In this document: positions 49,495-54,599 of the stretch, one piece after another
Layout of the letters: every line of letters begins with the position of its first letter
Position numbering within the stretch: position 1 is the first letter of the stretch
Program-made: the position numbers and the translations under genes
NCBI RefSeq assembly: GCF_017641085.1
Contig: NZ_JAEPPI010000001.1
Location: 62,001 to 126,000 of the forward strand
Length of the DNA: 64,000 nt
Direction of reading: 5' to 3'
Source: Gracilimonas sp.
GTDB taxonomy: Bacteria; Bacteroidota; Rhodothermia; Balneolales; Balneolaceae
The notes under the pieces: generated by a model
What the model was told of the DNA's origin: nothing
Databases searched by the model: none
Seen by the model: only the letters and a program-made list of their open reading frames with translations

Positions 49495-49866
49495 ATGAGA
49501 AATGTGAAATATGATTTACAGGAAAGGCTGATAAATTTTTCAGTTATGGTACTGGAAATTGTTGATCAGCTGCCTAAAACAGTTATGGGAATCCATTTTG
49601 CTAAGCAATTAGTAAAAAGTGGAACATCACCGGCATTTCATCATGGTGAAGCTCAAAGTGCGGAATCAAGAAAAGATTTTATTCATAAACTGAAAATTGG
49701 CGCCAAAGAACTTAGAGAGACGCAGGTAAATATTTCTATTCTCAAAAAGAGAAGAATACTTGCTGACCTAATCTTGGATGAAACATTGAAAGAAAACAAT
49801 GAACTCATTGCAATATTTGTGAAGAGCATCCAAACAGCAACGCACAACTTTAGAAAAGAAACTTAA
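49495..49866 (+). CDS. Four-helix-bundle protein, S23/IVP family
   Basis: 123 residues of the S23 (23S rRNA intervening-sequence protein) family: MVLEIVDQLPKTVMGIHFAK, then QLVKSGTSPAFHHGEAQSAE, the family's hallmark 'QL..S.tS...N..EA..A.S..dF', and DFIHKLKIGAKELRETQ. It forms a four-helix bundle and probably a pentamer or dimer. It has no catalytic motif. In other bacteria S23 genes lie inside intervening sequences of 23S rRNA whose ends are complementary. Here the gene is intergenic and boxed by an inverted pair of short repeats, so it looks like a freestanding version of that arrangement. It is related to Avd of diversity-generating retroelements in fold only; no reverse transcriptase is nearby. 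Confidence 0.88.
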   Translation: MRNVKYDLQERLINFSVMVLEIVDQLPKTVMGIHFAKQLVKSGTSPAFHHGEAQSAESRKDFIHKLKIGAKELRETQVNISILKKRRILADLILDETLKENNELIAIFVKSIQTATHNFRKET

Positions 49867-50156: not shown

Positions 50157-52592
50157 TTGTCCACTTTTGTTGATGTAGCTTTACCGGCAGCGGTCCGAAA
50201 GCAGTTTACTTATCACGTACCTAAAGAGCTTATGGCTTCTGTACAGCCCGGACAGCGCGTGTGGATACCATTCAGAAACTACTATGCCATTGGTGTGATT
50301 GTGGGTGTTCATAATCAAACTCCTTCTTTCAAAACAAAGCCCCTGCGAAAAATACTGGATGAGGATCCTCTTCTGTCGCAGGAGCTTTTGAAGCTTACCC
50401 AATGGATTTCAAGGTTCTATTATAGCAGCTGGGGAGAAACCATTCAGGCTGCACTGCCCGCGGGTTTGAACTTCGTTTCCCGCAAATACCTGAGAGTATC
50501 TGAATCGGTTGATGATGCAGGATTGAGCGAAGATCAAAAGGAAATTATTGAAGACCTTCAACAATCAGAAACAACGCTGAATGAAGCCAAGAAAAGGTAT
50601 AAGGGAACGGGTTTAAATAAAGTATTCTCAAAGCTGCTTAAAAAGAAAGTAATCGAGATTTGGGAAGAGCCAGACCTGAAGGTGACGGTAGCTACAGAGC
50701 GGCAATGGATATGGGCTGAAGGGAGAAATAAAGAGGCAGCACAAGAGTTTTTAGAAAGTGATGGTGCTAACAGTGAATTGAAGTGGATAGAAGCACTTGC
50801 TCATATCGCAGAAAAAATTCCTATCCGACAATCTGAGATTTCCGGGGAGTCGGTTCTGACTTCATACACTCTTAAAAAGCTGCGTGACGAAGGCTGGATT
50901 ACCTATCAGGATGTGGAGAAGAAAACCGAAATCGATCACCTATCTCATGAACCGGAATCCATAAAAACCCTGAATGAAGACCAGGAAAAAGCCTTTGAGA
51001 AAATAAGTGAATCACTGACGAAAGAAGAGTTTGCCAATTATTTGCTGTTTGGAATTACAGGAAGTGGAAAGACCGAAGTATATATCCATGCGCTCAAACA
51101 AGTGGTGGAGAATGGTAAAGGCGGCATTGTTTTAGTTCCTGAGATTGCACTCACCCCGCAAACGGTATCCCGGTTCTACCGCATTTTTGGTAATCAGATT
51201 GCTGTTCTGCATAGCCGAATGACAAACCGTGAACGGCTGCAGGCGTGGAAAGATCTGAATTCAGGGAAAAAGAACATCGCCATTGGGCCACGGTCAGCAG
51301 TGTTTGCTCCGGTACAAAATCTTGGGCTTATTATTCTGGATGAAGAACACGACAGCTCGTACAAGCAAATAGATCCCGCTCCCAGGTATCATGCCCGGGA
51401 AACGGCGATTGTGAGAGCCAGAGAAAATGAAGCCGTTGTCATTATGGGGTCGGCTACGCCAAGTATGCAGGCATTGAATATGGCGGCCAAAGGGAAGTGT
51501 GATATGCTGGAGCTTAAAAAGCGCCATGCAGAAGCAAAGCTACCCGAAGTGGAGGTGCTGGATCTAAAACAGTATAAAGGAGCGATGCGAGGCGAACTGG
51601 CGGTTCCTCTTTTTATGGAGATGGAAGAAGCTTTGGAAAAAGGAGAGCAAATTATCTTGTTGTACAACCGGCGCGGCTATGCCAGTTATCTGCAATGTGA
51701 AGATTGCGGGCATATCCCCCAAAGCCCGGAATGTTCGGTTAGCCTGACGTATCACAAGCGAAAAAACCTGTTGATGTGCCACTACTCCGGGTATTCCCGT
51801 AGGGCTGACACCAACTGCGAGCATTGCGGTTCTTCAAACCTGAAAGTACAAGGATCGGGAACGCAAAATATCGAAGAACAACTCGGAGATTTGTTCCCTG
51901 AGGCAAGCGTAATCCGGTTTGATCGAGACTCTACCTCCCGAAAAGGGGCCCATGAACAGATTCTGAATACATTCGGGGAAGGTGAAGCAGATATATTAAT
52001 AGGAACTCAATTAGTGGCCAAAGGACTCGATTTCCCAAATGTAACGGTGGTAGGGGTGATTGATACCGATACGGAATTGGCCTTTCCTTCATTCCAGGCA
52101 ACGGAAAGGATGTACCAACTGCTGAGCCAGGTTTCGGGAAGGTCGGGGCGAGGAGAGAAGGCCGGCACCGTATTTCTGCAAAGCCGGCAGCCGGAAAATC
52201 CGGCCATCCAGTTTGCTAAAGAACACGATCACCGGGGTTTTGCAAGGCAGGAGATGGAATTCAGGAAACCGCTTTATTATCCGCCTTATTCACGCCTTAT
52301 ACAGTTTGAGCTTAAATCAACAAAGGAACAAGAAGTGAGTCAGGCGGCCCATCAGCTAACCTCATCAATTGGCAGAGTGGTTCCTGAATTAGCTGTTTTA
52401 GGGCCTTCGCCGGGTGCCATTCCCTGGATGAATAAGAAGTACATTTGGGAGGTAACGCTGAAGATTGACCCTGAAAAAGGAGCGGGTTATATCGAAGCGG
52501 TGGTGGAGAAAATTATGGGAGTATATGAAGCAGAAACCAAAGGCAGATTCTCATCGGTGAGGGTAAATGTAAACGTGGACGCCATTCAGTAA
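50157..52592 (+). CDS. priA: Primosomal protein N' (PriA helicase) with altered zinc site
   Basis: An 811-residue helicase that restarts stalled replication forks. 3'-end-binding domain at the N-terminus (FVDVALPAAVRKQFTYHVP), Walker A GITGSGKT (299-306), DEEH 395-398, HSRMTNRERL, and GTQLVAKGLDFPNVTVV with SGRSGRG in the C-terminal half. Of the eight family cysteines only C514, C517, C526, C541, C554 and C557 remain. The third and sixth are serines (S523, S544), each one base from a Cys codon. By comparison with E. coli PriA, one zinc site is intact and the other lost. I keep the TTG start at 50157, because an in-frame stop lies just upstream and the next residues fit the family. Confidence 0.93.
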   Translation: MSTFVDVALPAAVRKQFTYHVPKELMASVQPGQRVWIPFRNYYAIGVIVGVHNQTPSFKTKPLRKILDEDPLLSQELLKLTQWISRFYYSSWGETIQAALPAGLNFVSRKYLRVSESVDDAGLSEDQKEIIEDLQQSETTLNEAKKRYKGTGLNKVFSKLLKKKVIEIWEEPDLKVTVATERQWIWAEGRNKEAAQEFLESDGANSELKWIEALAHIAEKIPIRQSEISGESVLTSYTLKKLRDEGWITYQDVEKKTEIDHLSHEPESIKTLNEDQEKAFEKISESLTKEEFANYLLFGITGSGKTEVYIHALKQVVENGKGGIVLVPEIALTPQTVSRFYRIFGNQIAVLHSRMTNRERLQAWKDLNSGKKNIAIGPRSAVFAPVQNLGLIILDEEHDSSYKQIDPAPRYHARETAIVRARENEAVVIMGSATPSMQALNMAAKGKCDMLELKKRHAEAKLPEVEVLDLKQYKGAMRGELAVPLFMEMEEALEKGEQIILLYNRRGYASYLQCEDCGHIPQSPECSVSLTYHKRKNLLMCHYSGYSRRADTNCEHCGSSNLKVQGSGTQNIEEQLGDLFPEASVIRFDRDSTSRKGAHEQILNTFGEGEADILIGTQLVAKGLDFPNVTVVGVIDTDTELAFPSFQATERMYQLLSQVSGRSGRGEKAGTVFLQSRQPENPAIQFAKEHDHRGFARQEMEFRKPLYYPPYSRLIQFELKSTKEQEVSQAAHQLTSSIGRVVPELAVLGPSPGAIPWMNKKYIWEVTLKIDPEKGAGYIEAVVEKIMGVYEAETKGRFSSVRVNVNVDAIQ

Positions 52593-52679: not shown

Positions 52680-54599
52680 ATGGGAGAAGAGCGCGTAAAG
52701 CTTGCTGACGATAACGAACAGGTGCAGAACTTCATGAAGCATGTGTTCCGCGATATGCGGGCCTTGAAAACCATGCTTGAAAATGACTGGTTTGAAACCG
52801 ATACCATTCGAATTGGTGCTGAACAGGAGCTTTGTTTAGTAGATCAAAACGTAAAAGCTTTTCCAAAGTCGATCGAAGTACTTGAGAACCTGGGGGAAGG
52901 AAATTATACCACCGAGTTTGCCAAGTTTAATCTTGAGATTAACATGGACCCGCTGACTTTTACAGGGAACTGTTTGTCTGAGATGGAGCATAATCTGCAT
53001 AGAGATGTGGAGCATGTCAGAAAAACCGTCAGGGAATTAGGTGGAGACATATTGCTGACCGGAATCCTGCCAACTATCCGGAAAATGGATGTGGATATGA
53101 AAAACCTGACTCCACTTCAGCGATATGAAGCCCTGTGCAAAGCCATAAATAAATTGCGGGGCAAAGAATTTGAGCTTCGGATTCAGGGAATGGATGAGTT
53201 ATTGATGCGGTTTGACTCACCCTTATTGGAAGCCTGTAATACAGGTTTTCAGGTTCATTTGCAGGTTAAACCTGATGAATTTGTGAATCGATACAACATT
53301 GCACAAGCGGTTACCGCTCCGGTTTTAGCTTGTGCAGTAAATTCTCCGGTATTGTTTGGGAAACGACTTTGGGCTGAAACCAGGGTAGCCCTATTTCATC
53401 AGTCTATTGATACACGGCAGGTGGGAGAACATTTGCGTGATTCCAGCCCGCGTGTGACATTTGGGAACGAATGGTTGCAAGACAGCATACTGGATATCTA
53501 TAAAGAAGACATCTCCAGGTATCGGGTTATGCTAAGTGCTGAAGTAGAAGAAGAAGTGGAGAAACTAATTGAGGAAGGTACAGCTCCGGAACTTATGGCG
53601 CTTAAAGTGCATAATTCTTCAGTGTACAGGTGGAACAGGCCTTGTTATGGTATTAGTAACGGAAAACCTCATTTAAGAATTGAAAACCGAATATTTCCAT
53701 CGGGACCCACAGTTGTAGATGAAGTGTCAAATGCAGCTTTTTGGCTTGGACTTCTGAATGGTTTTGAAGATGAGTATAAAGATATTACCGAAGAACTTGA
53801 TTTTGATAACGCCCGGATGAACTTTTTTGCAGCATCCAAAATGGGACTGGATACCAAATTTATGTGGACCGGTGACCGGAAAGTATCGGCGGTTGATTTG
53901 ATTAAAGATGAACTGTTACCGATTGCACGGAACGGATTAATGAAAGCTGATATCAATTCTTCTGACATTGATACCTACCTTGGTGTGATAGAGGAGAGAG
54001 TGAATTCAGCCCAAACCGGTTCTTATTGGGTGGTAAAATCGTATGGAAATTTAGTTAAAGAGAGTAACAGAGACCAGGCACTTACAGCCATCACTTCAGC
54101 AATGATGAAAAATCAAAACAAAGGAGAACCTGTTCATAAATGGGGGTTAGCAAAGTTGGAAGATTTGGAAAACTGGAAACCGTCATCCCTGATGGTTGAA
54201 GAGTTTATGACTACCGACCTGTTTACCGTTCATAAAGATGATATACTCGAATTTGTTGCAAACCTGTTAGACTGGCGAAAGATCAGGTATTTACCCGTAG
54301 AAGATGATCAGAAGCACTTAATAGGGTTGATCACCATGAGGCAGTTGTTACGGGAATACTCAAAAGCTGAAGGGGAAGGCGAAGACACAGGTACCAAAAC
54401 CGTAAGCAATATCATGCTTCAGAATCCCATTACGATTCACCCGGAAGCATCTATAATGGAGGCTATGAGAATACTGAGGGAGCAAAAGATTGGTTGTCTC
54501 CCGGTAGTGAAAAACAGCCGGCTTATAGGAATAATATCGGAGGGTAACTTTATGAAGATTACCATTCGTCTTCTGAAAACACTTGAAAACCAAAAATAA
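52680..54599 (+). CDS. Glutamate-cysteine ligase-like (GCS2) protein with tandem CBS domains
   Basis: 639 residues. About 30-430 match the carboxylate-amine ligase GCS2 family: IGAEQELCLVDQN (metal/ATP-binding glutamates), FNLEINMDPL, ACNTGFQVHLQV, and ENRIFPSGPTVVDEV. Two CBS domains follow at about 505-560 (MTTDLFTVHKDDILEFV) and 575-630 (MLQNPITIHPEASIMEAM), likely sensing an adenine nucleotide. The reaction is probably ATP-dependent joining of an amine to a gamma-carboxyl group; the substrate is unknown. It is followed after 32 bp by an aspartoacylase-like hydrolase gene, a likely partner that breaks an amide bond. Confidence 0.88.
   Translation: MGEERVKLADDNEQVQNFMKHVFRDMRALKTMLENDWFETDTIRIGAEQELCLVDQNVKAFPKSIEVLENLGEGNYTTEFAKFNLEINMDPLTFTGNCLSEMEHNLHRDVEHVRKTVRELGGDILLTGILPTIRKMDVDMKNLTPLQRYEALCKAINKLRGKEFELRIQGMDELLMRFDSPLLEACNTGFQVHLQVKPDEFVNRYNIAQAVTAPVLACAVNSPVLFGKRLWAETRVALFHQSIDTRQVGEHLRDSSPRVTFGNEWLQDSILDIYKEDISRYRVMLSAEVEEEVEKLIEEGTAPELMALKVHNSSVYRWNRPCYGISNGKPHLRIENRIFPSGPTVVDEVSNAAFWLGLLNGFEDEYKDITEELDFDNARMNFFAASKMGLDTKFMWTGDRKVSAVDLIKDELLPIARNGLMKADINSSDIDTYLGVIEERVNSAQTGSYWVVKSYGNLVKESNRDQALTAITSAMMKNQNKGEPVHKWGLAKLEDLENWKPSSLMVEEFMTTDLFTVHKDDILEFVANLLDWRKIRYLPVEDDQKHLIGLITMRQLLREYSKAEGEGEDTGTKTVSNIMLQNPITIHPEASIMEAMRILREQKIGCLPVVKNSRLIGIISEGNFMKITIRLLKTLENQK

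What the first reader, a model, noticed from the sequence alone, without database searches (positions are those of the whole stretch)
51696..51827. PriA has lost two of eight zinc-binding cysteines
The positions of cysteine 3 and 6 read AGC (S523) and TCC (S544), each one base from a Cys codon. Mapped on E. coli PriA both belong to the same zinc site, so one site is intact and the other cannot form normally. The rest of the helicase looks functional.
Basis: partly seen in the sequence, partly recalled or inferred. Interest (0 to 1): 0.5.

Follow-up and report, generated by a model that had tools for sequence, protein, structure and literature searches.

The report
PriA helicase losing one zinc site
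Many members of one bacterial family appear to have rebuilt one of the two zinc-holding sites of the DNA-replication restart enzyme PriA into what looks like a zinc-free site, and the copy in this genome is caught part of the way.

Summary
PriA (50157-52592, +) has Cys1, Cys2, Ser523, Cys4, Cys5, Ser544, Cys7, Cys8. The serines fall on E. coli C445 and C466, in one zinc site. Sequencing error is excluded: the ten genus genomes read all have Ser at position 3 and Ser or Thr at position 6.

It is more than two lost cysteines. In 93 distinct aligned PriA proteins the other site (Cys1, 2, 7, 8) is intact in 93. The affected site is altered in 56, with one replacement set: position 3 to Ser, 4 to Ser, 5 to Asp, 6 to Ser or Thr. 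Five of the ten genus genomes have lost all four. Cys5-to-Asp needs two base changes and arose about five times on my trees. Ser3 comes with Arg548 and Asp551 (55 of 55). The family's Fodinibius branch, other Balneolales and the rest of a phylum sample keep eight cysteines.

Best reading: a zinc clamp at the base of the unwinding hairpin is being replaced by a polar network, as in the adenylate kinase lid (E. coli: His, Ser, Asp, Thr). Zinc loss and network are inferred, not measured.

The parts
50157..52592 (+). priA, replication restart helicase PriA, 811 aa, TTG start as listed
51696..51827 (+). cysteine-rich region (CRR), residues 514-557
   Evidence: equals E. coli PriA 436-479
51696..51707 (+). 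zinc site 1, first knuckle, C514 and C517 (E. coli C436, C439); Cys in 93 of 93 aligned rows
51816..51827 (+). zinc site 1, second knuckle, C554 and C557 (E. coli C476, C479); Cys in 93 of 93 aligned rows
51723..51725 (+). Ser523 (AGC) in place of Cys3 (E. coli C445); Ser in 55 of 56 altered rows
51732..51734 (+). Cys526, Cys4 of site 2 (E. coli C448); Ser in 23 of 56 altered rows
51735..51776 (+). 14-residue segment between Cys4 and Cys5, predicted hairpin (strands 531-533 and 538-540), bracketed by site 2
   Evidence: secondary structure; equation with the E. coli wedge hairpin is inference
51777..51779 (+). Cys541, Cys5 of site 2 (E. coli C463); Asp in 17 of 56 altered rows
51786..51788 (+). 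Ser544 (TCC) in place of Cys6 (E. coli C466); Ser in 50 and Thr in 6 of 56 altered rows
51729..51731 (+). Glu525: Glu or Asp in 53 of 56 altered rows, Asp in 1 of 30 eight-Cys Balneolales rows
51774..51776 (+). Met540: Leu, Met or Ile in 56 of 56 altered rows, Arg in 30 of 30 eight-Cys Balneolales rows
51798..51800 (+). Arg548: in 55 of 56 altered rows (all 55 with Ser3), 11 of 30 eight-Cys Balneolales rows
51807..51809 (+). Asp551: in 55 of 56 altered rows (all 55 with Ser3), 0 of 30 eight-Cys Balneolales rows
51819..51821 (+). Glu555 inside the site 1 knuckle C7-x-x-C8: in 53 of 56 altered rows; Pro, Lys or Ser in 25 of 30 eight-Cys Balneolales rows

Best explanation
In much of the family Balneolaceae one of the two structural Zn(Cys)4 sites of PriA, the one that brackets the CRR hairpin, has been converted from a metal clamp into a zinc-free polar clamp. 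The four ligands become Ser, Ser, Asp and Ser/Thr. A surrounding set (acidic 525, hydrophobic 540, Arg548, Asp551, Glu555) supplies hydrogen bonds, a salt bridge and packing in place of the metal. The window carries an intermediate (Ser, Cys, Cys, Ser): the site can no longer bind zinc in the normal way and two former ligands are left over. Site 1, whose neighbours in sequence form the docking surface for the next primosome protein in E. coli, is kept. PriA should therefore still open forks and load the replisome, with one zinc per molecule instead of two. Shown: the sequence states, their distribution, the repetition of changes, the linked residues. Inferred: zinc loss, the polar network, the role as hairpin clamp, retained helicase activity.
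For: Site 1 intact in 93 of 93, site 2 altered in 56 of 93, with one replacement set only: C3 to Ser (55), C4 to Ser (23), C5 to Asp (17), C6 to Ser (50) or Thr (6). Asp is not one base from Cys, yet all 17 replacements at C5 are Asp. Parsimony gives 5 changes at C5 on both trees; holding the five Asp rows of the Rhodohalobacter-like group together is rejected (AU p 0.031; group named after seeing the tree). Codons move while the residue holds: Ser3 is AGC in 29 and AGT in 26 rows; C6 has six Ser and three Thr codons. C4 or C5 is never changed while C6 is Cys (0 of 93). Ser3 always comes with Arg548 and Asp551 (55 of 55). Precedent: the adenylate kinase lid is held either by a Cys4 metal site or by a hydrogen-bond network that includes the same positions (PMC4155613, passages); E. 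coli AK has H126, S129, D146, T149 there. LigA and ClpX of this genome keep their zinc cysteines, the only two other zinc proteins checked.
Against: No metal analysis and no atomic geometry: the tools gave no coordinates. The single AlphaFold model has low confidence at the two site 2 knuckles (blocks 521-530 and 541-550 at pLDDT 68 and 67, against 88 and 90 at 511-520 and 551-560), and a control model of an eight-Cys relative could not be run. In E. coli the zinc motifs are described as essential (PMC7290993, passage) and Cys-to-Gly mutants as helicase-deficient (title of Zavitz and Marians 1993, seen only in reference lists), so retained activity is an assumption. The new acidic residues could be metal ligands. 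A CRR exchanged by recombination would reduce the number of independent events. L051 (Cys3 kept, Ser6, without Arg548 and Asp551) nests inside the Ser3 rows (placing it outside is rejected, AU p 3.8e-6; long branch), so a simple one-way order is not clean.
Confidence: 0.66

Rival explanations
1. Site 2 still binds a metal with a changed ligand set: C526 and C541 plus new ligands such as E525, D551 or H519, and Asp at position 5 in the later forms.
For: New acidic residues appear together with Ser3; His519 is in 53 of 56 altered rows against 6 of 30; Asp can bind zinc.
Against: 25 of 56 altered rows have lost C4 or C5 as well, and 15 have lost all four, leaving only polar residues that bind zinc weakly. 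D551 and E555 flank site 1, not site 2, in sequence.
Confidence: 0.2
2. Decay: site 2 is dispensable in this family and its residues drift.
For: Four cysteines lost stepwise; three states coexist in one genus.
Against: Drift would not give the same residues each time: 17 of 17 Asp at C5 although it needs two base changes; at C3 only Ser among 55 altered rows, while the whole 93-row tree needs 32 codon changes there and only 3 in the residue; 56 of 56 Ser/Thr at C6.
Confidence: 0.08
3. The CRR was rebuilt for a different partner protein (helicase loader); loss of the metal is a by-product.
For: Conserved new charges lie around site 1 as well (E555, D551); the CRR is the PriB docking surface in E. 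coli (PMC10175261, passages).
Against: Two of the four E. coli docking positions are the same in the window by spacing (D516 for D438, S559 for S481), two are not (S560 for T482, N561 for H483); no partner was examined here.
Confidence: 0.05
4. Sequencing or assembly error.
For: Each serine is one base from Cys.
Against: All 10 genus genomes read share Ser at position 3 and Ser or Thr at position 6, and named isolates such as Gracilimonas amylolytica (L055) and Rhodohalobacter halophilus (L073) show altered sites.
Confidence: 0.01

Closest known systems
Canonical two-zinc PriA (E. coli, Klebsiella; PDB 6dcr, 4nl4, 8fak)
   Same: PriA domains, helicase motifs, zinc site 1, and the spacing of all eight ligand positions
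   Different: Two of the four ligands of site 2 are Ser here, and all four are replaced in five of ten genus genomes
Adenylate kinase lid, Cys4-metal versus hydrogen-bond network (PMC4155613, passages)
   Same: Same kind of exchange: two knuckles, four ligands replaced by hydroxyl and acidic residues at the same positions, neighbours differently constrained; E. coli AK H126, S129, D146, T149 against PriA S, S, D, T
   Different: Unrelated protein; 16 residues between the knuckles there, 14 here; first position His there, Ser here; here partial states survive among close relatives
C+ and C- ribosomal protein paralogues (recalled, not tested)
   Same: Zinc-ribbon cysteines lost in a housekeeping protein
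   Different: There a second gene under zinc control; here one PriA, with a single PriA_C match in the genome

Membership tests
PriA (TIGR00595, NCBIfam equivalog) | Score above curated cut-off | tested here: met
   580.2 bits against 230.35; the narrower PRK05580 models match below their own cut-offs, the nearest being NF004066 with 766 against 813
PriA (TIGR00595, NCBIfam equivalog) | 3' DNA-binding domain, helicase core and PriA C-terminal domain | tested here: met
   PF17764, PF00270, PF00271, PF18074 over cut-off
PriA (TIGR00595, NCBIfam equivalog) | Overall fold of solved PriA | tested here: met
   6dcr_A Z 31.2, rmsd 4.1, 623 aligned; model predicted without templates
Two-zinc PriA | Four cysteines of site 1 | tested here: met
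   C514, C517, C554, C557
Two-zinc PriA | Four cysteines of site 2 | tested here: not met
   S523 and S544
Two-zinc PriA | Two zinc ions bound | not testable with these tools
   needs metal analysis
Adenylate-kinase-like replacement of a metal clamp (works like, not a member) | Replaced ligand positions occupied by residues able to hydrogen-bond | tested here: met
   Every replacement in the 56 altered rows is Ser, Asp or Thr
Adenylate-kinase-like replacement of a metal clamp (works like, not a member) | Actual hydrogen-bond network in the structure | not testable with these tools

The most novel reading that the evidence does not exclude
Balneolaceae PriA is a natural series caught in mid-conversion from a zinc-held to a hydrogen-bond-held domain: CCCC, (CCCS), SCCS, SSCS or SCDS, SSDS, SSDT. 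The same Cys-to-Asp step was taken repeatedly, so evolution has found the adenylate kinase lid solution again in an unrelated replication helicase. Site 2 zinc is then not needed for replication restart as such; a rigid hairpin base is.
Probability: 0.5. Interest if true: 0.68.

Novelty: new variant of a known kind. Interest (0 to 1): 0.52.

Why it matters
In E. coli the two C4 zinc motifs of PriA are described as essential for primosome assembly and recombination-dependent replication (PMC7290993, passage), and the CRR houses the unwinding hairpin and the docking surface for PriB (PMC10175261, passages). A living family that keeps one site and rebuilds the other separates what each site is for. 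It also gives a graded set of natural variants for asking how a protein can lose a structural metal without passing through a dead intermediate. My searches of the paper library (one search listed 20 of 46 papers) listed no title or abstract start about zinc-site loss in PriA; that library lacks most subscription journals.

Tried and rejected
Sequencing error: rejected by relatives. A second, eight-Cys PriA in the genome: PF18074 has one match; of the genome's 4 matches to the PriA protein, three are listed, PriA itself and two weak matches to residues 272-405 in frames of 1124 and 699 aa (Mfd-like and RecG-like by size, my reading); the fourth is not listed. General loss of zinc cysteines: LigA (CPAC...CVNPTC) and ClpX (CSFC...CDRC) are intact; only these two were tested. 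The adenylate kinase lid family PF05191 is not found in this genome, so the AK state could not be compared in the same organism.

One or two origins of the serines: not settled. C6 Ser is TCN in the Gracilimonas/Balneola group (33 rows, Thr codons counted with it) and AGY in the Rhodohalobacter-like group (23 rows, one Thr counted with it), which suggests two origins or a passage through Thr. The data do not reject a single clade of all 36 altered rows in the 52-row tree (AU p 0.583). Shared R548, D551 and E/D525 speak for one origin or for exchange of the CRR by recombination. I had hoped that L051 (CCCS) would be a clean first step; placing it outside the Ser3 rows is rejected, so it may be a partial back-change. 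The groups for these tests were named after seeing the tree.

A survey centred on another phylum failed; outside the window's phylum I saw only scattered named hits. Papers looked into without use: PMC13220808, PMC3787623, PMC8323898; literature searches gave nothing used, and led only to PMC3787623.

Full report
Observation. The window encodes one PriA, 50157-52592 on the + strand. Its cysteine-rich region reads C514, C517, S523, C526, C541, S544, C554, C557; S523 is AGC at 51723-51725 and S544 is TCC at 51786-51788. On E. coli K-12 PriA, read from its genome record, the eight positions are C436, C439, C445, C448, C463, C466, C476 and C479, so the serines replace C445 and C466. The protein is otherwise a complete PriA.

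Relatives. A search of 57 genomes from the window's genus, family and order listed a match in each, though some matches are to other helicases. I read PriA from 50 of the 57 (30 loci, 20). The 7 not read are G024, where no PriA-like match was listed, and G045, G047, G048, G052, G054 and G055, whose matches were split or partial. Of the 50, 22 have eight cysteines and 28 an altered site 2; all 28 are in the window's family, as coded by the tool, and five further members of that family (L021, L022, L023, L026, L035) have eight cysteines. In the genus, 10 of 10 have Ser3 and Ser or Thr at 6: four are SCCS like the window, one is SCDS, five are SSDT and so have no cysteine left in site 2. The named search kept the best 80 of 580 confirmed stretches: 46 have the altered site (L052-L097) and 34 have eight cysteines (L098-L131, among them Fodinibius and Aliifodinibius, Prevotellaceae, Kapabacteria, Globicatella). 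The altered ones are mostly titled Balneola, Gracilimonas, Rhodohalobacter or Balneolaceae; a few bear other labels (Chitinophagaceae bacterium L063 and L075, Rhodothermia bacterium L054, Bacteroidetes bacterium L090, Balneolales bacterium L093 and L094). Several of these loci repeat genomes (27 of 130 loci were duplicates).

Counts. Of 130 loci with a readable CRR, 103 were distinct. I dropped ten distant ones (L102, L105, L107, L110, L111, L113, L117, L120, L124, L127, all eight-Cys) and aligned 93. States at C3-C6: CCCC 37, SCCS 30, SSDS 10, SSCS 7, SSDT 5, SCDS 2, SSCT 1, CCCS 1. C1, C2, C7 and C8 are Cys in 93 of 93. 25 of the 56 altered rows have also lost C4 or C5, and 15 have lost all four. 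No row has C4 or C5 changed with C6 still Cys.

Phylum sample. 147 of 148 genomes matched (some were already). I read 90 of the 147: 30 loci given by the search and 60 fetched to cover the families. 17 are altered, all in the window's family (15 SCCS, 1 SCDS, 1 SSCS); 73 have eight cysteines. Four loci (L154, L155, L161, L192) were read in a wrong frame and re-read. L166 has two extra residues between C4 and C5, and I read its cysteines by eye. The query was the window's Ser-form, so the 30 loci given by the search lean towards it.

Evolution. Trees were built without the CRR columns. Parsimony gives 3, 4, 5 and 5 amino-acid changes at C3, C4, C5 and C6 on the 93-row tree and on the 52-row tree. 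If Cys is never regained, losses number 3 or 4 (C3), 4 (C4), 5 (C5) and 2 (C6). Cys to Asp needs two base changes; with BLOSUM62 odds a change from Cys goes to Asp about 4% of the time, so five of five, or even three of three, is most unlikely by chance (my product; it ignores recombination). The better supported minimum is three origins of Asp: the Gracilimonas group, L094, and the Rhodohalobacter-like group. Codons show constraint on the residue: Ser3 is AGC in 29 and AGT in 26 rows, and C6 uses six Ser and three Thr codons. Whether the serines arose once or twice is open: all altered rows as one clade are not rejected (AU p 0.583), while C6 Ser codons split TCN against AGY by clade.

Linked residues. 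Against 30 eight-Cys Balneolales rows, the 56 altered rows have Leu/Met/Ile at 540 (56 of 56; Arg in 30 of 30 of the others), Asp551 (55; 0 of 30), Arg548 (55; 11 of 30), Glu555 (53), Glu or Asp at 525 (53; 1 of 30) and Asn537 (50). All 55 rows with Ser3 have Arg548 and Asp551. The one altered row with Cys3, L051, has neither. The rows are related, so these are associations, not independent tests; columns outside the CRR also differ between the two sets.

Mechanism. In E. coli the CRR pivots on fork binding, exposes the PriB docking surface (D438, S481, T482, H483, next to site 1 in sequence) and carries a hairpin essential for unwinding (PMC10175261, passages). Site 2 brackets a 14-residue segment that the model predicts as a hairpin (strands 531-533 and 538-540). 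I infer that site 2 is the hairpin's clamp, and that in Balneolaceae it holds by hydrogen bonds and a salt bridge instead of zinc. The adenylate kinase lid shows the same kind of exchange: a metal on four cysteines in gram-positives, a hydrogen-bond network that includes the same positions in gram-negatives, with neighbouring positions differently constrained (PMC4155613, passages). E. coli AK has H126, S129, D146, T149 at these positions (that these residues are the lid positions 4, 7, 24 and 27 of that paper is recalled and fits their spacing), close to the Ser, Ser, Asp, Thr of five genus PriA proteins.

Limits. No metal measurement, no coordinates, one model with low confidence at site 2, no control model. 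Published E. coli work treats the zinc motifs as essential, so activity of the rebuilt form is assumed. The survey covers one phylum and others hardly. The window itself is an intermediate and could in principle hold a metal by C526, C541 and new ligands.

Noticed in passing
L051 (G029, 1.5 Mb genome), CRR: PriA with only Cys6 changed (CCCS), Cys3 kept, without Arg548 and Asp551; either a surviving first step or a partial back-change.
   Followed up: partly
G024 (same family, 96% complete): No PriA-like match listed, only weak matches (best E 2.5e-10) to the helicase core; PriA may be absent or lie in an assembly gap.
   Followed up: no
G163 (same family, 99% complete): The only one of 148 genomes without a match to the PriA CRR query.
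   Followed up: no
G000, whole genome: No match to the adenylate kinase lid family PF05191; the adenylate kinase may be a short form without this lid.
   Followed up: no
49495-49866 (+): 23S_rRNA_IVP family protein directly upstream of priA.
   Followed up: no
52680-54599 (+): GCS2 (glutamate-cysteine ligase type) domain fused to CBS domains, directly downstream of priA.
   Followed up: no
L047 (G034): The PriA match is listed with one in-frame TAA.
   Followed up: no
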